DNA of 38,516 bases from Oscillospiraceae bacterium (lineage in GTDB: Bacteria; Bacillota; Clostridia; Oscillospirales; Oscillospiraceae), in assembly GCA_017482385.1 (NCBI GenBank), contig JAFUNI010000019.1, forward strand, positions 1 to 38,516, in the 5' to 3' direction. Below, one piece after another: positions 19,278 to 38,366 of this stretch. Each line of letters opens with the position of its first letter. Position 1 is the stretch's first letter. A program made the position numbers and the translations under genes. The notes beneath the pieces are model-generated. The model had not been told where the DNA came from, made no database searches, and saw only the letters and a list, made by a program, of their open reading frames with translations.

Positions 19278-20133
19278 GGTGCCACCTCCTGTAAATCCAG
19301 AATCCCAGAGCAGCAAGACCCAAGACACCGGCAACACCGAGACTGATATACAAACCTTTTAGATATTCCTGCTCCCAAGTGGATGCCGGCTTTTCTTCCG
19401 GTGGAGTCTCCTTTACGATTTCCTCAGCTTCTTCATAGGGGATGCGGGATCCTCTCACAAGCAGCCTATGGGTGTTGACACCAAAAGGAGTGCAGGTGAT
19501 CAAAGTGCAATAGTCCATGCCGGATTCGATTCCCAGGTAAGTTGTATCGTGAGGCAGTACTGTTTTGATTTGATCGACCTGATATGCGAGTTTTTCACCT
19601 AACACCTCCAGATAAAACACATCTCCTTTTGACAGCTGGTCTAAATCTGAAAACATACGCTGAGATGCCATTCCGGAATGTCCTGTCAAGACCGTATGTG
19701 TGCTGCAGCCACCGACAGGCAGGGAAGTGCCTAACAAATGTCCGATTCCATACTCCAATGTTTTATCTTCTGTTCCATGAAAAATGGGAAGATTGACACT
19801 GATTGAGGGAATCTCTACATAGCCCATAATACCGTTTCCAGCAATATTAAGCTGATTCTTATAGTCCTCGGATGCCCACAAGAGTGCATCCTTAGAAAAG
19901 CTTTCTGTGAGCTGTATATTATTGGCTATGGCTTCGTTGTACGCAACAGCCAAAGCCTTTGCGGTTTCTTTTTCTGTATTATCGGCCTGCGCCACCTGTT
20001 CACGGAAATTCGTATGGATTTCCGACTGGTGCTGCTCGTTATACATAGTGCTGATGATTGGGTAGAGCATAATAACTATTGCCATAAGAAATGTAATAAC
20101 AGCAATACAGATCAGTAACAGTTTCTTTTTCAT
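19264..20133 (-). CDS. Class C sortase (289 aa)
   Basis: A pilus-type sortase: N-terminal membrane segment (about 6-29), catalytic His152 in TGHSG, Cys214 in TLITCTPFG, Arg223 in THRLLVRG, and a second membrane segment near the C-terminus (about 258-280), the class C layout. No clear DPx lid is seen (the corresponding stretch reads LLWASEDY). Class C sortases build isopeptide-linked pili on the outer face of the membrane. ATG 20133 has AAAGGAG 8 nt upstream; upstream in-frame codons are rejected for lack of SD. Likely substrates are the LPQTG pilin directly upstream and the LPETG adhesin. Confidence 0.9.
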   Translation of the reverse strand: MKKKLLLICIAVITFLMAIVIMLYPIISTMYNEQHQSEIHTNFREQVAQADNTEKETAKALAVAYNEAIANNIQLTESFSKDALLWASEDYKNQLNIAGNGIMGYVEIPSISVNLPIFHGTEDKTLEYGIGHLLGTSLPVGGCSTHTVLTGHSGMASQRMFSDLDQLSKGDVFYLEVLGEKLAYQVDQIKTVLPHDTTYLGIESGMDYCTLITCTPFGVNTHRLLVRGSRIPYEEAEEIVKETPPEEKPASTWEQEYLKGLYISLGVAGVLGLAALGFWIYRRWHRARN

Positions 20134-20154
20134 ATCTGCAACTCCTTTGGGAAA

Positions 20155-20176
20155 CCCCGGGGCGTGCACCCCGGGG
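20155..20176 (-). terminator. GC-rich stem-loop between pilin and sortase
   Basis: Two copies of CCCCGGGG (20155-20162 and 20169-20176) flank a 6-nt loop, giving a very stable hairpin followed by TTTCCC on the transcribed strand. Its position just after the pilin stop suggests partial termination or 3'-end protection that keeps pilin in excess over sortase. Confidence 0.65.
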
Positions 20177-20184
20177 CATATGTT

Positions 20185-22410: not shown

Positions 22411-22463
22411 TAGATTCTTTCCTTTCAAAAGAAATAGTTTTGTTATTGAATTTCAAATGGAAA

Positions 22464-22489
22464 CAAAAAACCAGGGACTTTACCCCTGG
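22464..22489 (-). terminator. Intrinsic terminator between adhesin and pilin genes
   Basis: CCAGGG / CCCTGG arms (22471-22476 and 22484-22489) with a short loop, followed on the transcribed strand by TTTTTTGTTT. It lies 22 nt after the adhesin stop, so only part of the transcription should continue into the pilin gene unless a promoter lies in 22411-22463; none is clear. Confidence 0.8.
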
Positions 22490-22511
22490 CATGACACTTT
22501 GCTATATTCAG

Positions 22512-25500
22512 TTAATGGACTCGCTTCCGCAAGCAAACCAACGCACCGGCACAAAGAGCAAGACAGATCACAATGCAGACAGGCATAAGCATGATAGACT
22601 TGGAGCCGGTTTCCGGTAAAGAATAGCTGTGGTTGTTCACCACCCGCAGTGTAACAGTCAGATCTTCAACCGGCAAATCACCCTCATAGGCAGGTCCGTT
22701 GAGCAGCATATAGCCCTCCGGGGCCTCCAGTTCCAAAATTCGGTAATACAGGGTGGGGTAGAGGTTGTCCCAAGAGATCAGACCGTTATCCGGAGATACC
22801 AGGGTACCATCTACTACATCCACATTGGAGCATCCGCCCTTAACCACAACAGAGGAATCGGAATAGAATACAGGACTCCAGGTGATACCGTCTTCGCTCC
22901 ACTGGAGTACAAATTTCGCACCAGCAAGCGGTTCGCCGTGAACATCTACCTTTTGTACAGAAATCTTACCGGGCCGCAGGGCATTGGTAAAGGTTACTTC
23001 TGCAGTCTCACCAGCTTTAACGGTAATGATCTGCGAAATTCCGGATATACATTGCCAAAGACTGTTCTCTTCCAATACCTCAGATATTTGGTACTGACCC
23101 GGTTCGAGGTCATATAGGATAGTTCCATCTGCGCCGGTTGTAACGGTGGTAATGAACTCCGTTTGTGTATCATTTACGCGACTGATAGTAAAGGTCCAGC
23201 CTTCCACAGTGCCAGCCTCCGGGTTAGCCAACGACTTAATGATCTTTGCTTTTCCAATCCACTGGTTATGGAAGGACACTTCTACAGTTTCTCCAGCTTT
23301 TACCGTAATGTTCTTAGGCTCTGTATCACAGTACCAATAGGGATCATTCTTATCGGATTCGATAATTTTGTAGTTGCCAGGCTGAAGATCTGCAACAATC
23401 GTTCCAGTACTGTCTGTTACATAGGTACCGATTTTATTATTGCTGGCATCATAGATAGTAAACTCCCAGCCTTCAACCTTGCCTCCGTTGGTTGCGGTTT
23501 TAACAATTCTTGCTTTACCGATCCATTGGTTGGTGAAAGTTACCTTTGCTGTTTCGCCAGCTTTGACTGTTACAGTCTTAGAGGGCTGCGGATCATTGTG
23601 CCAGTAGGGGTACACACCATCCGTTTCGATTACGGTGAATTGTCCGGGTTCAAGGTCCAAGGTGATGATGCCAGTGGCATCTGTGACATAATTGCCAATC
23701 ACATTTCCAGCGGCATCCTTTACAGTGAAGTGCCAGCCAGAGACGCTTCCGCCATTAGTCGCAGTCTTGACGATCTGTGCCTTACCTTTCCACTGATTGG
23801 TGAAGGTTACTGTTGCGGTCTCGTTTGCTTTTACTGTAACGGTTTTGGTGGGTTGGGGATCATTATGCCAGTATTCGTACACGCCGTCCGTCTCCGTCAC
23901 GCTGAATGTGCCTGGTTTGAGATTTAGGGTAATTACGCCAGAGCTGTCCGTGACATAATTGCCAATCACATTTCCCGCAGAATCCTTTACAGAAAAATGC
24001 CAGCCGGCCACAGAACCACCATTTGTCGCAGTCTTGACAATTTTCGCAACACCCAAAGTCAGCTTATTGTAAAACGAAATTGATGCTGCTTGGCCAGCGA
24101 CAATTGTTACTGCTTGTGGATTTTTACTGTCGCAGGCGTATAACTTAGCAATATCAGGATTTGTGTGACCAATTTCCTTTACCCATACCTGTCCGGCAGT
24201 GAGATTAGGGATAGATAGGTTTCCATTCACATCTGAGGTATGCGGACCAGAAATTAACTGTGTACAGTTTTGATCAGCATAGATATTAAATTGCCAACCA
24301 GCCACATTTTTTCCGTCCTCTGTTGTTTTCTTCAAGCTTAACGATCCGTTCGAGGCTTTTAACTTGAAGTAGGCAGGAACGGGGTCACTGGCAGGAATCG
24401 AAACCTTGATACATACCTGTTTACTCTTGTCGTACTGGTTATACCATACTTCGTACAAGGAAGATGCAGCGTCGGGGAGAGTAGCAGTCGCACTTTGGAC
24501 TCCAGTAGGAATTGCACCGTTAGCAGTAATTGTTAGGTTATTACCATTCTTACTATAAGAAACTCCACCGGTTCCAGTGAAAGTAAATCGCCCTAAGACA
24601 CCATTTGTATCCGTTACAGTAGTACTGGTTCCGGCTAGCTGTATCTCAGGAGCAGTGGCCGCAAAATCTCCTGCGAAGCTTGGGATCGTGTTATGCAACT
24701 GTAAATCACTGATAATGGAGTTGTACGCATACAGGAAGTGATCCACTGTCCCATCTTCGCTCATACAAACACCTTTAGACTTATCAAGCCAATAGGTACT
24801 GTTAAGCTTGTAAGGAGGAGTCGGCTCACGCAAACCCTGAACAAGCTCCCAAATGATAGCCTGTGTTGCAAAACGATAGCCAATATTAGGGTTATGCAAA
24901 TTCCATTTGCTGGTTTCGTTAATGCCCCAGTTTGTGTCCCATAGCTTGGTGGGGGCACCATACAGCAACACGAGGGCAATTGCAGTTCGCTGATCTGCGC
25001 TAAAGCCATACCAAATGGACTCACCGTGGGTATTGCCACTGCCATCAATGGGTAGATCGCCTACACCTGCATGACCACTGCCTATACTAAAGGATTTTTT
25101 ATTTTCCAAGCAGTATATCATATTCATGTAATCCCAGGGAGACGCCCCATCTTCATCGGCATAGTGGAAACCCTGACGAGTACCATCGGTACACGGAAAA
25201 TCCATCCAGTCGCAGTTACGAAGTGTTGCTGTCTTCTTGACCGACCGTGTGGTGGCTTTGAAAGTGCTAATAGGTTCTAGCGTAACATTACCTGCCTGAA
25301 GCTGATTGCTGGTAAAACCCGCTTCTACAAGAATTGGGTCTATCGTTCCATCGTATTCATCAGGGGGCGGTTCAGTACTTTCCTCCACGCCTGTTGGTTC
25401 GGTCTGTTCCAATTGATCGCTTGCATTCACTGTTGGCTCTGTGGTGCCGATTTCATCATCAATCTCTGCTGCATAGGCAGCAGGCATTATAGAGAGAAGC

Positions 25501-25544
25501 ATCATAAAAGCTAAAAAGAACACAAGCAGTCGTTTGAATTTCAT
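22512..25544 (-). CDS. Thioester-domain (TIE-type) adhesin with Cna-B repeats, LPETG anchor (1010 aa)
   Basis: Order of parts: signal peptide (1-26); acidic Thr/Glu/Pro spacer; thioester domain with the paired motifs YCLE (Cys145) and TQAIIWE (Gln228), the residues that form an internal Cys-Gln thioester able to bond covalently to host or partner surfaces; a linker; six Cna-B-like domains (about 395-920), of which the middle three are near-identical; a sorting signal LPETG with hydrophobic span and RKRVH tail. Such proteins are pilus-tip or surface adhesins. ATG 25544 has GGAGG 8 nt upstream. It is preceded by a lipoprotein and followed by a pilin and sortases. Partner specificity is unknown. 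Confidence 0.9.
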   Translation of the reverse strand: MKFKRLLVFFLAFMMLLSIMPAAYAAEIDDEIGTTEPTVNASDQLEQTEPTGVEESTEPPPDEYDGTIDPILVEAGFTSNQLQAGNVTLEPISTFKATTRSVKKTATLRNCDWMDFPCTDGTRQGFHYADEDGASPWDYMNMIYCLENKKSFSIGSGHAGVGDLPIDGSGNTHGESIWYGFSADQRTAIALVLLYGAPTKLWDTNWGINETSKWNLHNPNIGYRFATQAIIWELVQGLREPTPPYKLNSTYWLDKSKGVCMSEDGTVDHFLYAYNSIISDLQLHNTIPSFAGDFAATAPEIQLAGTSTTVTDTNGVLGRFTFTGTGGVSYSKNGNNLTITANGAIPTGVQSATATLPDAASSLYEVWYNQYDKSKQVCIKVSIPASDPVPAYFKLKASNGSLSLKKTTEDGKNVAGWQFNIYADQNCTQLISGPHTSDVNGNLSIPNLTAGQVWVKEIGHTNPDIAKLYACDSKNPQAVTIVAGQAASISFYNKLTLGVAKIVKTATNGGSVAGWHFSVKDSAGNVIGNYVTDSSGVITLNLKPGTFSVTETDGVYEYWHNDPQPTKTVTVKANETATVTFTNQWKGKAQIVKTATNGGSVSGWHFTVKDAAGNVIGNYVTDATGIITLDLEPGQFTVIETDGVYPYWHNDPQPSKTVTVKAGETAKVTFTNQWIGKARIVKTATNGGKVEGWEFTIYDASNNKIGTYVTDSTGTIVADLQPGNYKIIESDKNDPYWYCDTEPKNITVKAGETVEVSFHNQWIGKAKIIKSLANPEAGTVEGWTFTISRVNDTQTEFITTVTTGADGTILYDLEPGQYQISEVLEENSLWQCISGISQIITVKAGETAEVTFTNALRPGKISVQKVDVHGEPLAGAKFVLQWSEDGITWSPVFYSDSSVVVKGGCSNVDVVDGTLVSPDNGLISWDNLYPTLYYRILELEAPEGYMLLNGPAYEGDLPVEDLTVTLRVVNNHSYSLPETGSKSIMLMPVCIVICLALCAGALVCLRKRVH
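22980..24050 (-). repeat. Tandem Cna-B-like repeat array inside the adhesin gene
   Basis: The unit is about 264 bases (88 residues) and begins with A-[KQR]-I-[VI]-K-T/S followed by GWxF, and ends with TVKAxETxxVxFxN. Units starting near 24050, 23783, 23516 and 23250 are clear; the first three are nearly identical (TATNGGSVxGWHF and NDPQPxKTVTV). A more diverged unit precedes and another follows. Such arrays change copy number by recombination and act as rigid stalks. Confidence 0.8.
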
Positions 25545-26515: not shown

Positions 26516-27838
26516 TCACAGATTCTGACGGATCACACGGGTAATAATGCCTACTGCAACGCCACGATCTTCATCCAACCGGGTAACAACGAAGCTAACA
26601 TCATCTTTTTTACCCGGTGTACGGAAGTCATAGCAGGAATGAGCAATGGCATTGACGCCGTTGGAAAGCCGGATGAAGACAACACCCTTGTGGATATCGG
26701 TTACCTTGCCAGCGTATTTACTTTGGACCTTGCATTTACGCAAATTCTCCAGCGTATTGTCCTGGGTAACGCTGCGGACGTCGGCTACCACCTTTATCGT
26801 TTCTACCGAGTCACGCTTGACACTTTGGATACGAACAAGGACATTATCACCGATAGAATAATACTCCCGGGCATCTCCGATCCAGTACCAGGCAAGATCC
26901 TTTGCAACGATGGAGCATTCCACGCCAAAGATCTCAACGCGGATTCCTTTTTCTGCAACAGCAATCACTCGCGCCTGTACCAGCCGGCCTTCATGGATTC
27001 GATGGATACCGTTAACATCCAGATCCATGTAGAAGGTCTGCCGTTTTTTCAGCATTGCTTCTTTACGGCTTGCGACAACGGCACGGGTTTTAGAGTCGAT
27101 ACCCCGCACAATAAAATCGATCTCTGCGCCAAGCATCTTACTCAGCAGCTTGTGCTTCCGGGTCATAAACTCTTCATATGCCTTACCGGATACACCCGAA
27201 TTGGGCTCGATCATCATTTCCTTCAAAGGAATTACAACACGGAAACCCTTATAATCCACAATGATGATTGTTTTGTTATTCTCCATCTGTTCAACGCCGC
27301 CAAGCTGGCCAGTGAGGATCTTTCGGGTGCGGTAGGCATTATGGATCTCGTGCCAAATGAAATCGTCACGGTCACTCTTTGTTTCTACCTCACCACGAAC
27401 CTCAAGGGTCAGAATGGAAGCATTGGGTGTTCTTGATGCAGTGGAACGGGAAACAGGTGGTGGAGGAGGCAATAGTGCTTCATCCATATCATCCATCAAT
27501 GAATCCAACGCTTCATCATCCAGCATTACAGGAGATTCTGCTGCTTCCTCCGCATCTTCCGTAATCGTCTCCTCAGAAGTGTCCGTTTCGTCCGGAGCCG
27601 GTTCCGCTTCAACCTTCTTCTTACGGCTTGCGCGTTTAGGCTTCGTGGTCGTAGGTGCCGGAGTTTCGGGTACATCCTCTGTGGATACAGGATCATTGGG
27701 CGGTGTATCCTCATCATCGAGGAATACGGAAATATCATCTTCGGGGGGCACTGCTGCAGCGGGAATCGGTTCATCGAGTACTCCATTTTCTTCGGGGGTG
27801 GGGATATTGTCTTCGGTAAAATCGTTTGCTTTGGACAT
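26516..27838 (-). CDS. S1-like RNA-binding-domain protein (440 aa)
   Basis: The N-terminal about 150 residues are acidic/proline-rich and disordered, with a basic KPKRASRKKKVE patch and a PPPPP run. The middle and C-terminal parts contain S1-like OB-fold segments: HEGRLVQARVIAVAEKGIRVEIFG and YAGKVTDIHKGVVFIRLSNG are typical first strands. Proteins of this type are regular members of Clostridia conjugation operons, role unproven. ATG 27838 lies 13 nt after GGAGG; a TTG 12 nt upstream is too near the SD. It lies between VirD4 and the surface module. Confidence 0.75.
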   Translation of the reverse strand: MSKANDFTEDNIPTPEENGVLDEPIPAAAVPPEDDISVFLDDEDTPPNDPVSTEDVPETPAPTTTKPKRASRKKKVEAEPAPDETDTSEETITEDAEEAAESPVMLDDEALDSLMDDMDEALLPPPPPVSRSTASRTPNASILTLEVRGEVETKSDRDDFIWHEIHNAYRTRKILTGQLGGVEQMENNKTIIIVDYKGFRVVIPLKEMMIEPNSGVSGKAYEEFMTRKHKLLSKMLGAEIDFIVRGIDSKTRAVVASRKEAMLKKRQTFYMDLDVNGIHRIHEGRLVQARVIAVAEKGIRVEIFGVECSIVAKDLAWYWIGDAREYYSIGDNVLVRIQSVKRDSVETIKVVADVRSVTQDNTLENLRKCKVQSKYAGKVTDIHKGVVFIRLSNGVNAIAHSCYDFRTPGKKDDVSFVVTRLDEDRGVAVGIITRVIRQNL

Positions 27839-27865: not shown

Positions 27866-29854
27866 TTATGCCATCAATGAATTTTTATCGACGGCTATGA
27901 TCTCTCCGTCATTATCCGGAATATCCGGAGTAGGGGGCGGAGGCGGCGGTGGAGCAGAAACCGCATCTTTCGGTTTTTCCTTCGGGGTTTTTGGAGCTGT
28001 GGGCTTCTTTTTCGGCGGTTTCTTCTTCGCAGGTGGTTTAGGTGGTGGTTCGCTAAGCATATCCTTGCCTGTTTCCATTTCCTTTTGCCGCCACTGTGGG
28101 ACATAGCTGGATGCCTTACAGGATTTAAGCTTTCCAGCCTCCGGGTGTCTGGAGTAATCAAACTTTTGCACCTTCAGCGGTTTATGCCCGCGAATAATAA
28201 CAAGGGCCTGATCGTTTGGTAGCCGCATCACTTCATCCTGAGTCAGCACCGGACGCTTACCCACACCGCTGGTCTCACGAAATTCCGGTGTGTAGTTGGA
28301 TATACGCCAGGAACCAAGCTGCTTGGACTTGCTGGACACCGCTACGCTGGCAAGACCTGTTCTCTCTGAAACAAGAGAGGCCGTTAATGGATCTGAGCAA
28401 CCAAGAAACAATGTGGAATCACAGTTGCCCAGAATCTCCTGCCACAGGTTATAGGGATATCTGTTTTGCAGGCCGGCAAGGTTTTGGAATACACAGGACA
28501 TAGAAATGTTTCTTGACCGGATCACACTTAAACGGCGGGCAAGGTCAGGGATCGTACCGCAGGCCGTCAGCTCTTCACCGAGGATATGTACCGGCACTGG
28601 AAGTCTGCCGCCCTCGCAGTTCTTATCCGCATAGCGAACAAGCTTGATAAATACGAAGGAGACAAATAGGGAAGCCAGAAAATCAAAGGTACTGTCCTGA
28701 TCGCTTGTGATCAGAAAATATGCACAAGGTTGCTTTCCCGGCAGCTCCAATTCAATTTCATCGGCTGCGGTAATCTTCTTGATAAGATCTGCCTGGAAAA
28801 CTTGAAGCCGGCTGCCCAAGCCGATGATAACACCGCTACGCACCGTATCAGAAGCCTGCTTGAACAGGGTGAACGGTGCTTTTGCCGGATGGTTATTCGG
28901 CAGAACCTCAAACAAGCTGTTCAGCTCGTTCTCGGACTGGAGTGTGAGTAGTCGGTATACCTGGCCCATATTCCTATGTTCCGGTGGATAGCATCTGTCA
29001 GTATAGAGAACCAACGCTTTCAGCAAGTTCATTTCCGCGCTGTCCCAGAAGTGATCGCCCTTGGCTCCGCTGGTGTTCTTGATAATGACATCAACGAATA
29101 GCTGCGCCATCAGCTCCTGACCGTCAACCTCCGCAAGGCAATTCCAGGAATCGGAGTTTTCCGGCTGGACAAGGTTGAACATCTTTACGATATAACCTTT
29201 CTTGCGAAGATACTCACTGGTCTTCTCATAAAGCTCGCTCTTGGGATCGCAGATGATGAGAGATTCGCCGCCTTCCAATGTGTCCGGATTCATGCCGGCA
29301 GCACCTTGCAAAATACGGTTGACACAAAAAGCTCGGGTTTTCTTGGAACCACTTGCGCCGTATACTGCAATATTGCTGTTGAGCATCGTTTTCTCTGGGA
29401 TGCATACAGCTTTTCCGTCCAGCAAACCGAGGACAATACCTTTATGCTTTCGCAGATCCGGAACCAGTTCCAATACCTCTGCCATTTCCTTGCGGTCCAT
29501 CCAGCCGGATGTTCCGTAAGTTCCTTTGGAGGAATAAGTAAAGTTCCGATCTCGGTCATACTCACCTGTATCGCTGTATCCCATTCGCATGACCATCACC
29601 AAAAGAACGACGAGCAGCAAAATACAGGCACCAATACCGATCAGACCTTCCGGAATCCGGAAGGCTGCGCGGATACAGGTTAAGAAATCGGGCGATGCCG
29701 AAAGGGGAGAAGTCCCGTCCCCGGGAGAAGCTCCGCTTCGCTGCCACTGGTTGTAGTTGTAAATGAACTGTGAAATATATCCACCTGCGTAAAGGGTTGC
29801 CAAGATAGCCAGCGGCGCTGCTATCAGGATCTTAATGACTTTGCTTTTTTTGAT
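27866..29854 (-). CDS. virD4: VirD4/TraG-type coupling ATPase (about 662 aa; probable AUC start)
   Basis: The membrane ATPase that feeds DNA-relaxase complexes to the channel. Two membrane segments (about 8-30 and 72-95), Walker A as GASGSKKTR (about 164-172), a Walker B region reading HILGEELTACG (about 418-428), and the RSRNISMSCVFQNLAGLQ segment typical of the family; the tail (about 590-660) is Pro/Lys-rich. The usual Walker B Asp is Gly here. The only standard in-frame start is TTG 29947, which lacks an SD and would overlap the upstream gene by 116 nt. AUC 29854 lies 8 nt after AAGGGAG and gives the expected short cytoplasmic start (KKSKVIKIL), so I favour it. It overlaps the upstream gene by 23 nt. 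Confidence 0.85.
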   Translation of the reverse strand: MKKSKVIKILIAAPLAILATLYAGGYISQFIYNYNQWQRSGASPGDGTSPLSASPDFLTCIRAAFRIPEGLIGIGACILLLVVLLVMVMRMGYSDTGEYDRDRNFTYSSKGTYGTSGWMDRKEMAEVLELVPDLRKHKGIVLGLLDGKAVCIPEKTMLNSNIAVYGASGSKKTRAFCVNRILQGAAGMNPDTLEGGESLIICDPKSELYEKTSEYLRKKGYIVKMFNLVQPENSDSWNCLAEVDGQELMAQLFVDVIIKNTSGAKGDHFWDSAEMNLLKALVLYTDRCYPPEHRNMGQVYRLLTLQSENELNSLFEVLPNNHPAKAPFTLFKQASDTVRSGVIIGLGSRLQVFQADLIKKITAADEIELELPGKQPCAYFLITSDQDSTFDFLASLFVSFVFIKLVRYADKNCEGGRLPVPVHILGEELTACGTIPDLARRLSVIRSRNISMSCVFQNLAGLQNRYPYNLWQEILGNCDSTLFLGCSDPLTASLVSERTGLASVAVSSKSKQLGSWRISNYTPEFRETSGVGKRPVLTQDEVMRLPNDQALVIIRGHKPLKVQKFDYSRHPEAGKLKSCKASSYVPQWRQKEMETGKDMLSEPPPKPPAKKKPPKKKPTAPKTPKEKPKDAVSAPPPPPPPTPDIPDNDGEIIAVDKNSLMA

Positions 29855-30973
29855 TAAAAAAACTCCCTTCGAACTTATCAAAACGAATTGCTTGAATTTG
29901 GACCCTGCTTCCGCAAAAGCTTCGCAGAGCTTCGCTTTGAAAGTCAAAGCAAATCAGCGTGCCGCTTTTTTGGTGAAGTTCCAGACCGTTACAGAACCGG
30001 TTTATTCTCGGCATATCCAACAGATACCCAAATAGGACGGGATTCCCATCCCGGTCAATTGCATCGTTTACGATTGACAATCCGGGTTGCCCCGGTTTTA
30101 ATCCTTGGGTAAGAACACTGTCCAATGCAGCGCGCTTCGCTTTGCTGCATAAGAGCTTCAGAAGAACCTCTCCATAATGGTCATTGGTCAGATAATAAAA
30201 ATGCTCGTAGCTTCCGTCCCGAAGGAAGAAGCAACGGGCGTTGCTGTCAGACGAAGTCAGGATATCGGAAAAAAGGGCAAGCCCTTTTCCAATCATCAGT
30301 CCCGAAACCTGTTCTGCCTTGTACTGTGTACTCAGCCTTTCGTAACACACCGTACTGGTCAACAGGGCTTTCGCCCTCTGTTCCGCCCGGTAGTCCATTT
30401 TGGCTAATCCGTATCCGCCGTTGTAGGTAAGATACACACCGTCCACGGTCAGAAGTGCTCCCGCAATTCTGGAACCGCTTATTTTGATGGTCTCCATTCC
30501 CATTTGCTTGATCTCACGGGAAGTGTAAAAGGCAGACCCGGATAATGTGCTGACCGCACATCCATCCGGAGAAAAGACATCCGGTTTTAGGTCTCTGTAC
30601 ACAGGTATATCTGCCTCCATCATAAGCACATACATTTCTGCCAACCTATGCAATCTTAACCGACGCACAAGCTCACTTTTGAGTAGGTTAGTTTCTGCAT
30701 TTCCCGAAAGATAGAGGTCAAATCTATCTGGGTTTTGAACCAGAAGAAAGTCCTTTGCTTTCTTGGACAGGCGATAGCCTTTTACTTTATCTTTGAAATA
30801 CAGACGCAGTAGGTTGTCTGATTTTAGCAGGCGTATGACATTATCCAGATAGTTGGTACTGGTATGTAGTCTTGGCAGTATTTCTGTTGGTAGTTCACCG
30901 CAAATAGCAGTCAGCTCCATCAACCGGTAGGCTAATGTGTCCCGACTGGGGAAGGTGCTTTTTGCAGCCCCAT
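29832..30973 (-). CDS. Winged-helix accessory conjugation protein, start requires a -1 shift
   Basis: The long frame gives a soluble protein whose first about 75 residues (ELTAICGELPTEILPRL to KGYRLSKKAKDFL) read as a winged-helix DNA-binding domain, followed by a large alpha/beta domain; it resembles the Replic_Relax-type proteins of Firmicutes elements. A strong GGAGG with 7 nt spacing leads to ATG 30973 (MGLQK), which is in another frame and hits TAG after 13 codons. A -1 shift on the A5 run at 30963-30959 (or one extra A) would give MGLQKSTFPSRDTLAYRLMEL and a 380-residue protein. In-frame TTG 30923 or ATG 30920 are the fallback starts but lack an SD. It lies just upstream of virD4. Confidence 0.65.
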
Positions 30974-30990
30974 AACATCACCTCCAAAGC

Positions 30991-31136
30991 TGCAATTTCT
31001 ACCGGGGGTACTAAAGACCACGGTAAAATTTTCGATTGTGCGGCACGAAAAATACCTTGTGCCACTAAGGTTTTTTAGCTCTGCGCCTATGTTGGAAAAA
31101 ACCGCACCTGAGCCGGGTAAAATCCAACATTGTTTT
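30991..31136 (-). other. Intergenic leader with hairpins upstream of the winged-helix gene
   Basis: About 146 bases without a convincing gene. An 8-bp perfect inverted repeat, ATGTTGGA / TCCAACAT (31089-31096 and 31123-31130), encloses a smaller CCG..CGG stem followed by T6 on the transcribed strand. A second imperfect stem (GTGGCAC / GTGCCGC) lies near 31030-31065. Together they resemble an attenuator or regulatory RNA inside the conjugation operon. Confidence 0.4.
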
Positions 31137-31778
31137 TTAGGCTTTTTGACGCTCTGAGAGCCATTCCGGGAACCGCTTTTTAGGCATAACAAAGACCTTG
31201 GTTTCGTCGGTTTCTCCCGGCTCGGCAGTATGGTGAACATCACAGAGCAAACTGTTGTCGTCCACCATTGCGTGCAGTGCAATCACATCCAGAATCTGCT
31301 TCTGCTGCAGGTTGTCATAGTCAAAATACTTCCGTGATGCACAGCCAGATTGAAACACATGAACAAAGCAAACAGAGCATTCCCGAAACCTGGGGATCGG
31401 GAGTGCTCTGTTGAATTGCTCCAATGCAGCATTCAAAGGATCAAGGAAAAACTGGTTGCTGTACCTGCCCCTTTTCTTGGGCAGCAAGCAGGGGAGAGCT
31501 ACTTCTAAAATTCCGTCCCCAAAGGCGATTCTTACACCTTGGGAACTTGCCGCTTTTCCTAAGTATGCAGCCTTGGGAATGGTACCAGAATCGTAAAGGA
31601 TCTGCCTTAAAATACATGCTGCTTTTTCAGCCTGCAGCGCTGTTTCTGTGCTGATCGCTTCAAACTTTTCTGGGAACCGTTTGCCATCCAAGGTCTCCAT
31701 GCTGCCGATCTGTGCATCCATAATATGCAGCAGTTCACGGACTCGGTGTAATCGTATTTGCATTGCGTTTAGATCCAT
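31137..31778 (-). CDS. DUF6100-like conjugation-operon protein (213 aa)
   Basis: A soluble protein starting MDLNAMQIRLHRVRELLHIMDAQ, a coiled-coil-like N-terminal helix (1-60), then a beta-rich domain (about 85-170) with a Cys-containing CSVCFVHVF segment and a ECS motif. It resembles the DUF6100 proteins found between VirB4 and VirD4 in Clostridia elements; the assignment is from memory and tentative. ATG 31778 has GGAAAGG about 8 nt upstream, and the gene lies 5 nt after its neighbour. No enzymatic motif. Confidence 0.65.
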   Translation of the reverse strand: MDLNAMQIRLHRVRELLHIMDAQIGSMETLDGKRFPEKFEAISTETALQAEKAACILRQILYDSGTIPKAAYLGKAASSQGVRIAFGDGILEVALPCLLPKKRGRYSNQFFLDPLNAALEQFNRALPIPRFRECSVCFVHVFQSGCASRKYFDYDNLQQKQILDVIALHAMVDDNSLLCDVHHTAEPGETDETKVFVMPKKRFPEWLSERQKA

Positions 31779-31783
31779 TTTTA

Positions 31784-32314
31784 TCAGCCTTTCCGTAGTT
31801 GGTAATACCGGACGGTGCCGGATTTATCGACTGTACAGTAGCCGGCAATGGAGGGAAAATCCAGAGCAGAGATCTGTTCCGGTGTATCGACAAGTACAAT
31901 ACGACGGCTGCATCCCTCCTTCATTCGCTGTACTGCCTGGGAGACCAAAGCTTCCTGACCCTGCATTGTACAGATGATTTCGTATTCCTCGCCCTCCGCA
32001 AAGAAGACGATCTTTACTGGAAAATCACTGGCAGAGTGGTACTCTACACGGTCAAGAAAGTCAAGAAGCACCCATACAGCCTTTATCAAAGAATGATCCT
32101 TGGTTTTGAAATGTGTACCACTGGTGAAGTAGCTGCTGTCTGCTTCCCGCCGTATGCGACCCTGCTTGGTTAGCTGGGTCAACAGCGTCTTAATGTGATC
32201 TTCCTTACCGGGATGGAAACGAAATAATTGTTGTTCCAAAATGCCGGGATACATAGATATTTCCTGTAGCAATTGGGCAGCTTCGTTTCCAAAGATCTCT
32301 GCTCTGGTGTAGAT
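31784..32314 (-). CDS. DUF5697-like winged-helix protein (about 176 aa; probable AUC start)
   Basis: The N-terminal about 65 residues (LLQEISMYPGILEQQLFRFHPG then LLTQLTKQGRIRRE) read as a winged helix; the rest is an alpha/beta domain. It resembles the DUF5697 family of Clostridia conjugation operons (tentative). The frame is open from a TGA at 32325 and contains no standard start near the SD. AUC 32314 lies 9 nt after GGGAGG and would add YTRAEIFGNEAAQ, which looks coding. Fallbacks are TTG 32272 (no SD) and ATG 32254 (weak AGGA). An out-of-frame ATG at 32321 is only 2 nt from the SD. Confidence 0.7.
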   Translation of the reverse strand: MYTRAEIFGNEAAQLLQEISMYPGILEQQLFRFHPGKEDHIKTLLTQLTKQGRIRREADSSYFTSGTHFKTKDHSLIKAVWVLLDFLDRVEYHSASDFPVKIVFFAEGEEYEIICTMQGQEALVSQAVQRMKEGCSRRIVLVDTPEQISALDFPSIAGYCTVDKSGTVRYYQLRKG

Positions 32315-32349
32315 AGGGCATCACCTCCCTTCAAAGAAATTTAGACAGG

Positions 32350-35208
32350 TCAGCTTGCACAGCTTTCCTGCCTAAGACGGTCTACGATGGATTTGAGTTC
32401 TCTGCGGTCAGTTGTGATCAATTCTCGCTCCAGAGGGCTTGCTTTGAACTCGACCATGACATTGTTATTGTTGGTGCTGATCAGACCGTTGCCCCGTTCA
32501 AAATGGGTAATTTCCAGCACCTCAGCATCCGACAGATGTAAGGTGGATTGGACACGAAGTGCTTCATCGTCTTCCAAATTCAGAATGATTTTTGTCTTGG
32601 AATTGTTGATAATACCTTTTCCAAAACGGCCATCATCCAGATTAAAGAAGTCGTTCAAGTCCTGGCTGGCAAACACAGCGGAACCGCCGAAACCACGAAT
32701 GGTCTTTGCGATTTCAAGCAGAAAATCGCCTGCCAGTCGGGTGCCTGTGGCACCTGCGCCGGAAAGAAGCTGCCAGCACTCGTCGATAAATATGGCCTTT
32801 TCCTCAGTTCTGTCCTGTTTCGCACGGTCCCAAACGAAGTCCAGAGCCACGAACATACCAATGGTCAGCAGGTCACCGGTCAGGGATGAAATGTCCAGAA
32901 CGGTGTACTTGTTATCCAGAGAAACATTGGTCTGCTGGTTAAAGGAACGGGCAGAACCGTTTACCAGGCGATTGAGAATGTTGGCCATTCGCTGCGTGCT
33001 TTTTGCCTTCGTAAGCAGCTCATACAGATCACCTAACACCGGCATCTGTCGGTACTGACCGGGATTATACGGATCTTCCAGAGATTCGTTATCGTGGGTA
33101 ATACCCTTGGCGTTATAGGTGCGGATCATAGCTTCATCCAAAAGTTGTCGTTCCTCGTGGGTCATATCAGGGATCAACAGAGAGAAAAAGATGTGCAGCT
33201 GCTGAATCTTCTGAGCCAGTTTAGACAGTTGAATTCTGCCGCCATCCAGTAAATCATTTGCTGTTTGATCCACCTGCCGGATCTCCATAACATTGATACA
33301 ATGTGGGCTGGCAGGGGAGATCTGAATGAACTCACCGCCAACATTTGAACAAGCACGGTGGAACTCATGGCCCTTCAAAGGAGCAATGATAAATATGGGG
33401 ATACCTTTCCGACGCATACGCAGCGCCATAAGCTGCATTGTGAAGGTCTTGCCTGCGCCACTGGTACCAAGAATCGCCATATTCGCGTTCTTGTACACCG
33501 CACTATTAAAGATATCCACGATGATAAGGGAGCTGTTGTACTTGTTGACACCAAGCAAAATGCCGTTATTATCACACATCTCATAACTGGTAAATGGGTA
33601 GCAGCTTGCGGCGCCGCTGGTAAGTAAATTCCGCTTGCTGCGCTCATACAGACGCTTCTCCATATTCACTAAGGGCAGGGAAGAGAGGAATGCCTGCTCC
33701 TGCCGGAAGTGGCAGTTTACAATGTGCATATCCTGGGAAAGGAGCAATTTTCTCATTTCGCTGACTTTCCATTCCAACTCCTCTTCATTAGGAGCAGTAA
33801 TGGTAATCAGCAGGTTAAGATAATAGAAATCCTCGTTATTGGATAGGCCATCTTTGAGGTAATAGCCGCCACGGATCGCATTATCGATCTCGTCAAAGTC
33901 CGTATTGGTATCATTAGCGTCTTTCAGCTTGGAACGGTTGATACGGAGCTGTTGACCGACAGATTGAATGATTCGTTCCTTCGGCTGACGGGTGAGAAAC
34001 ATATCCATGTCCACACCGTCACCGGCATTGACGATCAGGCTTAACCAACCTGCGGGAACCTTCGTTTTGTACCCATCAGATGGTACAAGCAGATAGGCAT
34101 AATACAGACCGTCAATACAGATGTACCTTCCGTGCATAAAGTCAATATTCCGGGGAGAAAAGAACTCACCTACAGGGATATCCTCAATGGACATTCCTTT
34201 AACAAAGCGCTGTGCGGCGATTTCCTTCACACGGATGGGAAGGGGCTTTACAGCGCTTTCATTTCTGCAAAGGAGGTTGTATAGTACATCCACAACGAAC
34301 TCGTTTTCATTATCCGGGACGACGACTTTATTGCCACATTGACGCAAGTAATTGGATGCTGTATGAACCGCCGTTTGTATGGCTGTGATGGCATCGCTTT
34401 CCTCGCTGCGCCGGGTATTGCTCCACGGCTCATACTCGAAGATTAGGAAAAAGCGGCGTGTGACAGCCTCTCTGGAGCTAATCTGCTGAACGAATTGCAG
34501 GTAGTCCTCCTGCATCAGCCGGCAGTGCTCATTGGTTTCTGTTTCCATTTCTTTGCGTACTGTTTGCATATGCAGATTGATATCTGCACGGCGAGTAAGC
34601 ACTTTGAACTGTACCCGAACGGGACAAATCTTCAGGTAGGAAACGAAAGAGTAGATGATATTACGCTGCTCCCGTCCGCTTCTAAGCAGAAAGTTGATGG
34701 GGATTACCTCCAGAATCTTCACATAACGGTGATCCTTTGTATATACGATTCCATTCTCCACCTTGGAGATAGGAATGTACTCAGACACCAGATTGATTGT
34801 GGAGTGCTGTTCCTCTGAGGCAGGAGCTTCACCATCCGCTTCCTGCTTTCGCTTTTTTGTCCTTTTCCCGGCAGCCATTGCTTTACGCTTACGCTTTTCC
34901 GGTGCCACATCTGTCACTACTCTGCGGTTTTTGAGATACTTAACAAAGACGATTAAGAATGAGGAAAGGCTTTCACCGCCAATTCCCATCAGCGCAAAGA
35001 GTGCAGCGGGCAAAGCAGTCAGGCAAAGAATGATAACCTTTGCGGTTACACCAAATGGAAGCAGAAATATAACCGGCACCCCGATGACCACTGCCAGGAT
35101 ACCGGCCTCAATTACATTTCTGACCTTAAACAATCCACCGAGGAAGGTACTGGAACCTATGAAATTCGGTGGGATTGTGTAAAGGTCGTGGTCGTTCTGA
35201 TTGTTCAT
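32350..35208 (-). CDS. virB4: PrgI-VirB4 fusion conjugation ATPase (952 aa)
   Basis: The main motor of the mating channel. The N-terminal about 95 residues (YTIPPNFIG, then two membrane segments near 27-48 and 52-72) match PrgI-type proteins that are usually separate genes just before virB4; here they are fused through a basic linker (KRKRKAMAAGKRTKKRKQ, about 98-120). The VirB4 part has Walker A GTSGAGKT (about 580-587), Walker B AIFIDECWQ (about 802-810) and a late FGGSAVFASQDL segment typical of the family. ATG 35208 is chosen because GCGAGG lies about 5 nt upstream; GTG 35214 is two codons earlier. It follows the wall hydrolase gene by 32 nt. Confidence 0.9.
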   Translation of the reverse strand: MNNQNDHDLYTIPPNFIGSSTFLGGLFKVRNVIEAGILAVVIGVPVIFLLPFGVTAKVIILCLTALPAALFALMGIGGESLSSFLIVFVKYLKNRRVVTDVAPEKRKRKAMAAGKRTKKRKQEADGEAPASEEQHSTINLVSEYIPISKVENGIVYTKDHRYVKILEVIPINFLLRSGREQRNIIYSFVSYLKICPVRVQFKVLTRRADINLHMQTVRKEMETETNEHCRLMQEDYLQFVQQISSREAVTRRFFLIFEYEPWSNTRRSEESDAITAIQTAVHTASNYLRQCGNKVVVPDNENEFVVDVLYNLLCRNESAVKPLPIRVKEIAAQRFVKGMSIEDIPVGEFFSPRNIDFMHGRYICIDGLYYAYLLVPSDGYKTKVPAGWLSLIVNAGDGVDMDMFLTRQPKERIIQSVGQQLRINRSKLKDANDTNTDFDEIDNAIRGGYYLKDGLSNNEDFYYLNLLITITAPNEEELEWKVSEMRKLLLSQDMHIVNCHFRQEQAFLSSLPLVNMEKRLYERSKRNLLTSGAASCYPFTSYEMCDNNGILLGVNKYNSSLIIVDIFNSAVYKNANMAILGTSGAGKTFTMQLMALRMRRKGIPIFIIAPLKGHEFHRACSNVGGEFIQISPASPHCINVMEIRQVDQTANDLLDGGRIQLSKLAQKIQQLHIFFSLLIPDMTHEERQLLDEAMIRTYNAKGITHDNESLEDPYNPGQYRQMPVLGDLYELLTKAKSTQRMANILNRLVNGSARSFNQQTNVSLDNKYTVLDISSLTGDLLTIGMFVALDFVWDRAKQDRTEEKAIFIDECWQLLSGAGATGTRLAGDFLLEIAKTIRGFGGSAVFASQDLNDFFNLDDGRFGKGIINNSKTKIILNLEDDEALRVQSTLHLSDAEVLEITHFERGNGLISTNNNNVMVEFKASPLERELITTDRRELKSIVDRLRQESCAS

Positions 35209-35240
35209 TGACACCTCGCTTTACTTAGGATAACACCTGA

Positions 35241-36653
35241 TTACTCCGAATAGGTGATATATGGAATTTTCAGCCAGTGTGTCCACCGACCGTCAGATAG
35301 ATTTGTTTTCACGACACCGTACCGGGTTCCCATTGCTTCAATTACCATACCATCACCGATATATATACCGATGTGGCCGGCGTGCCAAACTGCAAGGCCA
35401 GGGATCTCCGGAATGGTACCAATTGTGCCTTTTTCGGTTGCGTTGTAGTACATGGAATCCGCACCAATATCGGGCATACCGTTTGTGCCGTAACCAACCT
35501 CCAGTGTTTCTACATTCAGCCAGCTATAGCCCTTGATAAGGCCAACACAGTCAGCTGTGCGGCCGCCGAGCCAGTTAGCCTCAATAAAGTCAGAGTAACC
35601 GCCGACTTCATCAGGATACTGCTCCAGCTTGTAGGCATATAGGTCAGAATCAAAGACACTTCCGTAAGTACCCCATACATAACCCCAGTGACGACTTTCC
35701 GCTTCGATGGCCCATTGCACCAAGTCCAAATTGTTCTTGGTGGAGGGGTCTTTATAGCCGGAAATATCAATGGTCGTATCTCTGGCAAAGGCGGAATTTA
35801 CTGTACCCGCAAATCGCTCATCCTGCATAAACAGATTTAGGTTGCTTGCGTAGTTTTTGGCAAGCTCCCGCTGTTCGTCTGTCAGCGCAAAGACTTGATC
35901 TGCAAAATGAGCTTCTCCGGTAAAGGAGATCCTGTATATCCGCCATACCTCTTCCACATTGGTGACTTCTCCTGTTTCAGGATCGGTCTGGGTCAGAGGT
36001 ACTGCTTCACCGGTTTCTGGATCTGTGGTCATAACGACCTTGGATTCCTCAGTAACGGTGTATGTGTACAGCAAATCCATATGCGAGCGAATCATTTGTG
36101 ATAGATCATCTATGGATACGCTGGCGTAATCGTCCCCCTTTGAAGCACAGTACATAGACACCAACTGATTGGCGTCAAAAAGCATACTCGTAGCATAAGG
36201 GTTAATCACCTCAATCTGATCCGCATCTGAAGAATCGAAATCCGATTGTATCTGTGATACCGTATTTGCCAGCGCTTCCGCTAAGATCGCGTCCACAGCA
36301 TCGGCTATCTGGGTTGTAGAATCCAGCAGGGCAGTGCCACTGTTGATGATAGGATTATTTGGATCAGCAGGGGAGTAGGCATCGCCAAGACCGCCGAAGA
36401 TAAGACTTGGCAGCATCATTATGTAGATGATAGGCAGCATAAGCACAACGGTGGCCGCAATCAGAATCTTAGTAATGATCTTGCGGTTTTCCCACACCGC
36501 ACTGGCAATGGCACCGTATACACCGCCTGCAGCCGCACCTTTTGCAATCTTGGCAATCGCCTTGCCGGTTTTAACTGCACCTCTGACAGCTTGGGCGGTA
36601 GAGGCACTTTTCTCAAGGACCTCAGAAGCACCGCTTTTCTGTTCGTCGGCCAT
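35241..36653 (-). CDS. NlpC/P60 cell-wall hydrolase of the conjugation system (470 aa)
   Basis: A VirB1-like enzyme that opens peptidoglycan for the mating channel. One membrane segment (about 60-85) anchors the protein; a long extracellular middle follows. The C-terminal about 150 residues are an NlpC/P60 domain: WGYVWGTYG, the nucleophile in RTADCVGLIKG (Cys about 366) and the His in HAGHIGIYIGDG. It matches the CD1108-type proteins of Clostridia elements (from memory). ATG 36653 directly abuts the TAA of the preceding gene, with AAAGGA 10 nt upstream, so the two are coupled. Confidence 0.88.
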   Translation of the reverse strand: MADEQKSGASEVLEKSASTAQAVRGAVKTGKAIAKIAKGAAAGGVYGAIASAVWENRKIITKILIAATVVLMLPIIYIMMLPSLIFGGLGDAYSPADPNNPIINSGTALLDSTTQIADAVDAILAEALANTVSQIQSDFDSSDADQIEVINPYATSMLFDANQLVSMYCASKGDDYASVSIDDLSQMIRSHMDLLYTYTVTEESKVVMTTDPETGEAVPLTQTDPETGEVTNVEEVWRIYRISFTGEAHFADQVFALTDEQRELAKNYASNLNLFMQDERFAGTVNSAFARDTTIDISGYKDPSTKNNLDLVQWAIEAESRHWGYVWGTYGSVFDSDLYAYKLEQYPDEVGGYSDFIEANWLGGRTADCVGLIKGYSWLNVETLEVGYGTNGMPDIGADSMYYNATEKGTIGTIPEIPGLAVWHAGHIGIYIGDGMVIEAMGTRYGVVKTNLSDGRWTHWLKIPYITYSE

Positions 36654-37607
36654 TTACAGCTTGTCCTTTCTGCGGGGTACAGGTGGAAGTTTCTTGGTGA
36701 TGGATTCCAGGTATGCAACAGACCCGTCCGGTGCCTTATAGGGTGTTTTCTCCACTGCATCAGCAGCATACTGTTTATACCACTCATTTCCGTCAGCAGA
36801 GTAAACTTTGCTGTATTCACCCTCTGGAGCAGTGTACTGTGCTGTAGAGTACATTCCAAAGGCGATACCTTCCGGATGCTCTTCGGATGTTTCTACACCG
36901 GTGATTCGTCCACCGCCGATCTCCACATTGGAGAAGCTGGGAACACCATCGGTGCCGGGTTCCATGCCCGCATATCCCATATAGGATTGCAGGGCTTCCT
37001 CAGCTTTTGCGCCGGTAATAGAACCCATAGAGCTGATGTTTCCGGTTGCGACTGTGCCGATTACATTGTTTGCAAAGTTTCCACCTTTAGCAACGGACGA
37101 AGCATATACTCGGCCGCCAATGCCACCTGATGTTCCTGATCCCGGACCGGAGGAAGGCGCAGTAGTGGATTGAATCGCCCCTCTTGTAACACTGCGGCTA
37201 ACCACGCCAGCAAGTCCGCCAGACATAAATCCACCGGACGAACCGCCACCGGAGCCACCACCTCCTCCAGAACCTCCGCCACCGCCACCTCTGCCGCCGC
37301 CAGCAAAACCTCTGACAACACCGGCACCTCTGGCAGCGATCAATGCTTCAGCCATAAGAGAACCGCCTGTATGACCAACATTGATACCCAATGCGGACAT
37401 AAAGGAGTCGATCTTCTGAGAGACCTTCAGAAAGGCAAGGGCGCATAGGAACCATACCAACACATTTCCGGCAACACCCTCTTTACCAATCACAGCGACC
37501 TGGGCTTCCACTTCTGCTTCTGTTACAGCCAGAGCAGGTTGACAGATAGCGCATAAAATCGCGATAACGGATAGACCGGTGTAAAACAGTCTTTTCATTC
37601 TTTTCAT
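36654..37607 (-). CDS. Gly-rich membrane protein of the conjugation channel (317 aa)
   Basis: A signal peptide or first membrane segment (about 8-27, ending ALA) is followed by a second hydrophobic segment (about 46-64), then a Gly-rich stretch (about 104-130, runs of G with S) and a polar C-terminal half. No enzymatic motif. The position between the TrbL-like protein and the wall hydrolase, and the Gly-rich tail, suggest it is a partner of the channel; it could functionally correspond to the hydrophilic tail of longer TrbL proteins. ATG 37607 has AAAGGAGG about 9 nt upstream. Confidence 0.75.
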   Translation of the reverse strand: MKRMKRLFYTGLSVIAILCAICQPALAVTEAEVEAQVAVIGKEGVAGNVLVWFLCALAFLKVSQKIDSFMSALGINVGHTGGSLMAEALIAARGAGVVRGFAGGGRGGGGGGSGGGGGSGGGSSGGFMSGGLAGVVSRSVTRGAIQSTTAPSSGPGSGTSGGIGGRVYASSVAKGGNFANNVIGTVATGNISSMGSITGAKAEEALQSYMGYAGMEPGTDGVPSFSNVEIGGGRITGVETSEEHPEGIAFGMYSTAQYTAPEGEYSKVYSADGNEWYKQYAADAVEKTPYKAPDGSVAYLESITKKLPPVPRRKDKL

Positions 37608-37622
37608 TACAACAGTCCTCCT

Positions 37623-38333
37623 TTAGATAGATAACGGGTTGGAAATAAATGCACCGACCATCGAAGTAAACAGGCGCAGGCACCAGGCGTTCATTACGAG
37701 CAGAAATACCTGACCGCCGAACATACGGCACCATGATTTGAAAATGTTGGAGGTGCTTTGTGACGCTCCCATAGCAAAGGCAACGGGAGAGGTATAGACC
37801 AAAACACCTAACAGTACATATCTCTCTGCCGCTTCAAACAGCAGTTTGATATAGTTCCAGGCAAGGATCAGTACAAGAATCAGTGAGATAAGGGATACTG
37901 TACCGCTGGCACATACACCCACGATGGTAAGAATCACGGAATTGAAATTCGCAAAGTTCAGCGGAGGCAGCTCCGAATTCATTATCCAGCGGTAGGGTGT
38001 ACCGCCAATTTTGAGAACGATACTTACAATATCGTCAGAGAAGTAGGCCAGCAGAATGAATAGTACCGAACGCAGGCTCAGCTTCACAGGATCTTCCGCT
38101 TCAATTCCGGCAACAGCTCCATAATTTTTAAAGAGCTGCCAAACCCAGTTCAGCAGGATCAATCCGATTGCCAGTCCTACGAAGATATTGTACATTGTTT
38201 CCGCCGCAGGAAAATATCGCAGAAATACGGTCATATCACAGCCCAGAGCACCCAATACCGAGGTTGTAATCAGATCAAGACCGTTCATTACCTGCTGTGC
38301 GATCCACTCTACTATGCCATCTAAAATACCGAT
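37623..38333 (-). CDS. TrbL/VirB6-like channel protein (about 236 aa; probable AUC start)
   Basis: A polytopic protein with about five or six hydrophobic segments, a conserved-looking LITTSVLGALGCDMTVFLRYF start and a EAAERYVLLGVLVYTSPVAFAMGAS segment; it matches TrbL/VirB6-like inner-membrane channel proteins of Clostridia elements. The first standard start, ATG 38288 (MNGLDL), has only a weak SD. Upstream codons GILDGIVEWIAQQV look coding and run back to AUC 38333, which is 7 nt after AAGGAG. A GTG overlapping the SD is out of frame. I favour AUC. Confidence 0.8.
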   Translation of the reverse strand: MGILDGIVEWIAQQVMNGLDLITTSVLGALGCDMTVFLRYFPAAETMYNIFVGLAIGLILLNWVWQLFKNYGAVAGIEAEDPVKLSLRSVLFILLAYFSDDIVSIVLKIGGTPYRWIMNSELPPLNFANFNSVILTIVGVCASGTVSLISLILVLILAWNYIKLLFEAAERYVLLGVLVYTSPVAFAMGASQSTSNIFKSWCRMFGGQVFLLVMNAWCLRLFTSMVGAFISNPLSI

Positions 38334-38366
38334 AGGATCACTCCTTCCGTAGCGGCTTTAGCTTAA

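What the first reader, a model, noticed from the sequence alone, without database searches (positions are those of the whole stretch)
29852..38333. Three conjugation genes appear to start with AUC after strong ribosome binding sites
Seen: virD4 (AUC 29854-29852, 8 nt after AAGGGAG), the DUF5697-like gene (AUC 32314-32312, 9 nt after GGGAGG) and the TrbL-like gene (AUC 38333-38331, 7 nt after AAGGAG). In each, the frame has no AUG/GUG/UUG at a usable distance from the SD, the codons just after the AUC look coding, and the next standard start is far away or without a good SD. Known: AUC is a very weak but possible bacterial initiator. Inferred: weak initiation would keep channel and coupling proteins scarce, or reflects an unusual initiation mode of this element. 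Three cases in one operon at optimal spacing argue against chance.
Basis: partly seen in the sequence, partly recalled or inferred. Interest (0 to 1): 0.7.

Follow-up and report, generated by a model that had tools for sequence, protein, structure and literature searches.

The report
Conjugation coupling-protein gene avoids AUG start
In a family of gene-transfer elements of gut bacteria, the gene for the protein that feeds DNA into the transfer channel almost never starts with the normal start signal but keeps a weak one behind a very strong ribosome-binding site, which probably holds the protein at a low level.

Summary
In detail: all three AUC codons sit where stated, 7-9 nt after a strong SD. 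A relative from another assembly (95.2% DNA identity) keeps all three. The cases are not alike. In virD4 the odd start is old and conserved: of 72 family members (window included), 64 use AUA (48), AUC (10), GUA (3) or UUA (3); 6 use UUG/GUG/CUG; 2 have AUG only at a stretched SD spacing; none has AUG at the normal place. Neighbour genes in the same loci mostly use AUG/GUG/UUG. On the same tree, comparable A/G third positions change 9.4 times on average and each shows G somewhere, so AUG seems selected against. In trbL and the DUF5697 gene, homologues start with AUG/GUG at the same codon: AUC there is a lineage change. infC, the known IF3-controlled gene, shows AUC/AUU/AUA at its start in 31 of 31 loci read from the host's family. 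Best reading: strong SD plus near-cognate codon throttles the coupling protein and probably makes it IF3-sensitive (not measured). Extra: the gene before virD4 lacks an in-frame start in many elements; in 26 loci an out-of-frame AUG/UUG is always followed by GGR, suggesting a -1 slip at codon 2.

The parts
27866..29854 (-). virD4 (VirD4/TraG coupling protein, CD1115 family), read from AUC 29854-29852
   Evidence: NCBIfam NF045973 395.5 bits against cut-off 250; Pfam T4SS-DNA_transf; codons 2-60 under purifying selection among homologues
29863..29869 (-). SD AAGGGAG of virD4, 8 nt before AUC
   Evidence: sequence; spacing 8-9 nt in most homologues
29832..30974 (-). gene before virD4 (unknown function), in-frame stretch after its SD; its stop lies 20 nt into virD4
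   Evidence: homologues in 65 of 68 loci; no Pfam match; AlphaFold model mean pLDDT 88.6, no PDB match at E 0.001 or better
30971..30973 (-). out-of-frame AUG followed by GGG, 7 nt after SD: proposed start with a -1 slip at codon 2
   Evidence: sequence; NTG-GGR in 26 of 26 loci of this frame offset
30981..30985 (-). SD GGAGG of the gene before virD4
   Evidence: sequence
31137..31778 (-). DUF6100 gene
   Evidence: Pfam PF19595; homologues start UUG 39, GUG 12, AUG 3, other 1 of 55
31784..32314 (-). DUF5697 gene, AUC start 32314-32312
   Evidence: Pfam PF18954; homologues AUG 32, GUG 20, UUG 2, AUC 2, AUA 2, other 1 of 59
32324..32329 (-). SD GGGAGG of the DUF5697 gene
   Evidence: sequence
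32350..35208 (-). VirB4-like ATPase, AUG start
   Evidence: NCBIfam/Pfam matches, NF045971 below its own cut-off; start read
37623..38333 (-).
   Evidence: no Pfam/NCBIfam match; homologues AUG 37, GUG 9, AUC 1 of 47
38341..38346 (-). SD AAGGAG of the TrbL-like gene
   Evidence: sequence
26516..27838 (-). S1-domain protein gene right after virD4
   Evidence: Pfam S1 9.9e-13; tblastn match in 62 of 68 loci; start AUG read

Best explanation
virD4 of this element family is translated from a near-cognate start codon (AUC here; AUA in most relatives) placed about 8 nt after a very strong, little-structured SD. Selection keeps AUG out of this place. The pairing of a strong SD with a poor start codon works as a fixed throttle on the coupling protein, and because IF3 rejects such codons it probably also ties VirD4 synthesis to the ratio of IF3 to ribosomes, as for infC. 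Ribosomes probably arrive by coupling: the previous gene ends close to the virD4 start. Shown: position, conservation, absence of AUG, coding N-terminus, SD strength, overlap. Inferred: low output, coupling, IF3 sensitivity, benefit to the element. The AUCs of trbL and the DUF5697 gene are the same device acquired recently in this lineage, or tolerated weak starts.
For: 72 family members: AUA 48, AUC 10, GUA 3, UUA 3, UUG 4, GUG 1, CUG 1, and 2 with AUG only two codons later, 14 nt from AGGAGG; at least 12 changes of start codon on a quick tree, never to AUG in the normal place (41 distinct contexts). Controls on the same tree: 35 conserved Lys/Glu/Gln columns show 9.4 A/G changes on average, none with zero, none without G. 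Neighbour genes in the same loci are mostly standard. 59 of 72 have no AUG/GUG/UUG at the site or upstream to the in-frame stop; in 27 of these the first downstream one is at codon 50 or later. pN/pS 0.37 for codons 2-16 and 0.27 for 2-60 over 348 pairs. Of 7 genes compared, virD4 has the strongest mean SD duplex (-15.58; next DUF5697 -15.29) and the weakest local folding (-6.26; next -6.96): first in both, by small margins. The stop of the previous gene lies -5 to +20 nt from the start in 68 of 73 loci; in the other 5 the script overshot. Positive control: infC shows AUC 17, AUU 8, AUA 6 at its conserved start in 31 of 31 loci read (counted by hand). Precedents: S. aureus infC, ccpN, cvfC1 (PMC13009471, passages); Streptomyces sigR (PMC5472188, passages).
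Against: No expression, proteomic or ribosome-profiling data. In most xUA homologues the start overlaps the stop of the previous gene, which constrains the same bases. The SD also encodes the end of that gene in many relatives. Loci are related by descent, so the effective sample is well below 72. The rarest start assignments (CUG in L049, UUA and GUA loci) rest on SD spacing and the lack of other codons. In the wider CD1115 family (about 30% identity, 30 loci looked at by eye) most have an in-frame AUG near the N-terminus, so this is not a general need of coupling proteins.
Confidence: 0.8

Rival explanations
1. The odd codon is forced by the overlapping stop codon of the previous gene (AUAG, AUAA, GUAG, UUAG); the start is weak only as a by-product.
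For: In nearly all xUA loci the upstream stop UAG/UAA starts at the second base of the start codon.
Against: 15 loci read AUAA, where A to G gives AUGA and keeps a stop, yet none is AUG. L045 (AUA) and L121 (UUA) have no overlapping stop, nor do the 10 AUC loci.
Confidence: 0.1
2. virD4 has no start of its own and is made by programmed frameshifting out of the previous gene; the SD is a frameshift stimulator.
For: SD shortly before the junction; in one group of loci the junction reads U UUC CCA UAG, a heptamer of slippery form (contexts, by eye).
Against: The previous gene lies in frame +1 in 63 loci and +2 in 10, so no one shift serves all; the heptamer is absent from other groups; a shift would not explain the absence of AUG.
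Confidence: 0.05
3. virD4 starts at a downstream AUG/GUG/UUG, as annotated in public records.
For: PGAP places the Vescimonas virD4 start at a GUG 17 codons further on; the one annotated record I looked at.
Against: 27 of 72 have no standard codon before codon 50, which would cut off the hydrophobic N-terminus; codons 2-60 are under purifying selection; the SD is set about 8 nt from the odd codon.
Confidence: 0.04
4. The three AUCs are mutational decay or assembly error in a dying element.
For: trbL and DUF5697 homologues mostly have AUG/GUG there.
Against: Twin at 95.2% identity keeps all three, with 0 non-synonymous changes in trbL and DUF5697; frames intact.
Confidence: 0.04

Closest known systems
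infC (IF3) with AUU/AUC/AUA start, autoregulated
   Same: near-cognate AUH start after a strong SD, conserved over a family (31 of 31 loci read here)
   Different: infC makes the discriminating factor itself; virD4 has no shown link to IF3 and also uses UUA and GUA
Staphylococcus aureus ccpN (AUA) and cvfC1 (AUU) (PMC13009471, passages read)
   Same: conserved near-cognate start with extended SD; authors measured about 10% of AUG output in poor medium
   Different: not reported there for conjugation genes (word searches of that paper for mobile, conjugat, transposon: 0); here a conjugation gene in an overlapping operon
Streptomyces sigR with GUC start, IF3-repressed (PMC5472188, passages read)
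   Same: rare start sets stoichiometry in an operon and was misannotated
   Different: another codon; sigma factor, not coupling protein
VirD4-like conjugal transfer protein, CD1115 family (NF045973)
   Same: protein family of this virD4
   Different: of 30 distant members looked at by eye most have an in-frame AUG near the N-terminus, 9 of them with a strong SD at normal spacing; L209 looks AUA-started
dnaX / IS-element -1 frameshifting with SD stimulator (PMC5009743, passages read)
   Same: for the gene before virD4: a G_GGA_AAA-like site just after an SD; the review lists G_GGA_AAG as shift-prone and one IS element whose SD both initiates and stimulates
   Different: here the slip would be at codon 2

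Membership tests
Conserved near-cognate start attenuator (infC/ccpN/sigR type), virD4 | start codon other than AUG/GUG/UUG at normal spacing from a strong SD | tested here: met
   64 of 72 family members, plus one CUG; spacing
Conserved near-cognate start attenuator, virD4 | conserved through divergence, AUG absent | tested here: met
Conserved near-cognate start attenuator, virD4 | codons right after it are coding | tested here: met
   pN/pS 0.37 (codons 2-16)
Conserved near-cognate start attenuator, virD4 | lower output than AUG, and IF3 dependence | not testable with these tools
   needs reporters
Conserved near-cognate start attenuator, trbL and DUF5697 | conserved through divergence | tested here: not met
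   trbL 46 of 47 and DUF5697 54 of 59 standard; AUC kept in the twin (both genes); other cases: DUF5697 AUC in L108 and AUA in L088/L127, trbL AUA in L022
Programmed frameshift, virD4 | constant frame relation and slippery site | tested here: not met
   +1 in 63, +2 in 10
Programmed -1 frameshift, gene before virD4 | constant frame relation and slippery codon | tested here: met
   26 of 26 loci of offset 2 have GGR as codon 2, against 3 of 27 in-frame loci and 1 of 3 of the other offset; few independent lineages
Programmed -1 frameshift, gene before virD4 | shifted product made | not testable with these tools
   needs reporter or proteomics
VirD4 CD1115 family | score over NF045973 cut-off | tested here: met
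   395.5 against 250

The most novel reading that the evidence does not exclude
The element couples DNA transfer to the host's initiation fidelity: VirD4 is made only when IF3 is scarce relative to ribosomes (as for infC), and the gene before it is held down by a second device, a start codon whose own SD pulls the ribosome back one base at codon 2 (NTG-GGR), so that the two genes at the coupling step are gated by ribosome state rather than by a promoter.
Probability: 0.25. Interest if true: 0.8.

Novelty: new variant of a known kind. Interest (0 to 1): 0.62.

Why it matters
It would give a large conserved set of natural non-NUG starts outside infC (the largest I know of, from recall), including UUA and GUA, in a gene that decides when a mobile element transfers. 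It predicts that public annotation of these coupling proteins is often truncated, that start-codon choice sets the stoichiometry of a transfer machine, and that conjugation may respond to IF3. All are testable with reporters and proteomics. The paper searches aimed at it (listings only) showed no report of it; most subscription papers are not held.

Tried and rejected
Rejected: frameshift origin of virD4; overlap constraint as sole cause; assembly error; element-borne tRNA (no tRNA in the window; of 15 loci scanned only L072 and L075 hold any, Tyr/His/Glu/Lys and in L075 Ser, 4 kb or more past the end of virD4); host-wide relaxed starts: in 18 host stretches, 270 frames of at least 120 codons, 111 with an SD before a standard start, 115 without strong SD, 44 with SD-like matches before other codons only, mostly inside genes; I saw no convincing AUA/AUC/AUU start by eye, two doubtful ones in L147 and L157. 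This test is coarse. A viral-contig scan gave no relative. The structure of the gene before virD4 gave a good model but no PDB match at E 0.001 or better; the best hits are small winged-helix regulators over about 70 residues, so its function stays open. Paper PMC11497404 (passages) had nothing on AUA/AUC as start codons. Rows dropped before the 72 count: of 79 loci, L115, L126, L138 (best match does not reach the N-terminus), L112 (no SD, N-terminus not like the rest), L128, L133, L135 (open frame under 1,500 nt; their starts read UUA, AUA and UUG). In the infC control, L164 has an in-frame UUG one codon before its AUA and L168 reads AUA AUU in tandem; I counted them as AUA and AUU.
Full report
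What is in the sequence. The window is contig C11 bases 1-38516 of a 2.39 Mb genome in 35 contigs. A minus-strand conjugation operon runs TrbL-like gene, two unnamed genes, VirB4-like ATPase, DUF5697, DUF6100, an unnamed gene of about 363-380 aa, virD4, an S1-domain gene. The three AUCs are exactly where reported, 7 (TrbL-like), 9 (DUF5697) and 8 nt (virD4) after strong SD sequences. Twin locus L071 from another assembly, 95.2% identical over 19,088 bases, keeps all three AUCs. Non-synonymous codon differences between the two: none in trbL or DUF5697, 7 in virD4, against 12, 6 and 42 synonymous.

Homologues split the finding. I fetched 68 loci from GTDB species genomes with virD4 as query and read the aligned start codons wherever the N-terminus aligned. 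At trbL 46 of 47 are standard (AUG 37, GUG 9; the exception is the twin), at DUF5697 54 of 59, at DUF6100 54 of 55 (UUG 39, GUG 12, AUG 3), at two further genes 44 of 47 and 41 of 48. Most of the 10 exceptions at the last two have an AUG within about three codons, that is, alignment offsets. Other rare cases exist: DUF5697 AUA in L088 and L127, AUC in L108, trbL AUA in L022.

virD4 is different. With the window's own copy, eight order-level loci from other genomes and two plasmid loci added, 79 loci were looked at and 72 could be used (the seven dropped are named in Tried and rejected). Starts: AUA 48, AUC 10, UUG 4, GUA 3, UUA 3, GUG 1, CUG 1, and two (L086, L118) with AUG only two codons later, 14 nt from AGGAGG. 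AUG at the normal spacing: 0 of 72. The tree (quick method) needs at least 12 changes between these states. There are 41 distinct sequence contexts. As a yardstick, on the same tree 35 conserved Lys, Glu or Gln codons change their third base between A and G 9.4 times on average (range 1-16); no such column is free of change and none lacks G, also within the 48 AUA loci alone (33 columns). AUA to AUG is that same A to G step. I conclude that AUG is selected against. For comparison, a study of start-codon switches reports 61,358 reconstructed AUG starts of which 363 went to GUG, 113 to UUG, 2 to CUG and 1 to AUU (PMC5622118, passages).

The odd codon is the start. In 59 of 72 there is no AUG/GUG/UUG at the site or upstream as far as the in-frame stop, and in 27 of these the next one downstream is at codon 50 or later. 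pN/pS is 0.37 for codons 2-16, 0.31 for 2-30, 0.27 for 2-60, against 0.12 for 61-150 and 0.057 for 151-500 (348 pairs): weaker constraint, but coding. The SD lies at a nearly fixed distance. PGAP starts the Vescimonas virD4 17 codons after its GUA.

Rivals tested. The upstream stop overlaps nearly all xUA starts, but 15 AUAA loci could become AUGA and did not, and the 10 AUC loci, L045 and L121 have no overlap. A frameshift from the upstream gene fails because its frame is +1 in 63 loci and +2 in 10. Host-wide looseness is not seen in 321 kb of host DNA, though that test was coarse. No tRNA gene lies in the window.

How it most likely works. infC is the known gene with AUH starts that IF3 represses. 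In the host's family 56 of 61 genomes had an IF3 match; in the 31 loci I read, the host's own included, the conserved start shows AUC 17, AUU 8, AUA 6 after a GGAGG-type SD (hand count; L164 also has an in-frame UUG one codon earlier). The host itself has AUA. virD4 shares this design. In S. aureus, AUA/AUU starts with extended SDs gave about 10% of AUG output in poor medium, up to 30% for ccpN in rich medium (PMC13009471, passages); sigR with GUC is repressed by IF3 (PMC5472188, passages). By analogy VirD4 should be scarce and IF3-sensitive. That is inference; nothing was measured.

The gene before virD4. Its protein ends FEKFERRFFP in the consensus, so its last codons carry the virD4 SD in many relatives. 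At its own start, of 73 loci read, 34 have a standard in-frame start after the SD, 10 a near-cognate one (AUA, AUC, AUU, CUG), 3 no clear SD, and 26 neither. A second scan, written differently, returned 56 loci: 27 in frame, 3 with offset 1, and 26 whose SD-spaced AUG or UUG is out of frame by the same offset, needing a -1 shift. In these 26, codon 2 is GGR in 26 of 26 (UUG GGA 22, AUG GGG 4, the window and its twin included), against 3 of 27 in-frame loci and 1 of 3 with offset 1. The two sets of 26 differ by L099 (offset 1, does not fit) and L083 (which also has an in-frame AUU). In L088 and L127 the AUG frame stops after two codons. A review lists G_GGA_AAG as shift-prone and one SD that both initiates and stimulates in an IS element (PMC5009743, passages). 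I read this as a likely -1 slip at codon 2 driven by the initiating SD. By the virD4 tree the independent lineages are about four or five. The alternative, in-frame CUU or UAU as start, seems less likely.

Verdict. Observation confirmed; interpretation right in kind for virD4, wrong as an element-wide mode. The conserved absence of AUG in a coupling-protein gene is new to me and did not appear in the listings of the paper searches aimed at it: a new variant of a known kind of control.

Noticed in passing
window 30971-30985 (minus strand) and 25 homologous loci: Gene before virD4 appears to start out of frame with NTG-GGR after the SD and to need a -1 slip at codon 2 (26 loci, the window's own copy among them).
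   Followed up: partly
window 26516-27838 (minus strand): An S1-domain protein gene follows virD4, with tblastn matches in 62 of 68 loci; S1 helps initiation in bacteria (recalled), so a link to the weak starts is possible but untested.
   Followed up: no
window 18522-25544 (minus strand): Downstream of virD4 lie SpaA-type pilin genes and two sortases; the Vescimonas plasmid locus L139 has a like arrangement.
   Followed up: no
window 31137-31778 (minus strand): DUF6100 homologues also rarely use AUG: UUG 39, GUG 12, AUG 3 of 55; the window's own open frame begins with AUG at 31778.
   Followed up: no
window 31060-31160 (minus strand): A gap with an inverted repeat (ATGTTGG ... CCAACAT) lies about the end of the DUF6100 gene, before the next gene; possible terminator or regulatory hairpin (by eye).
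   Followed up: no
L139 9938-9989: Public annotation starts virD4 17 codons late because the start is GUA.
   Followed up: yes
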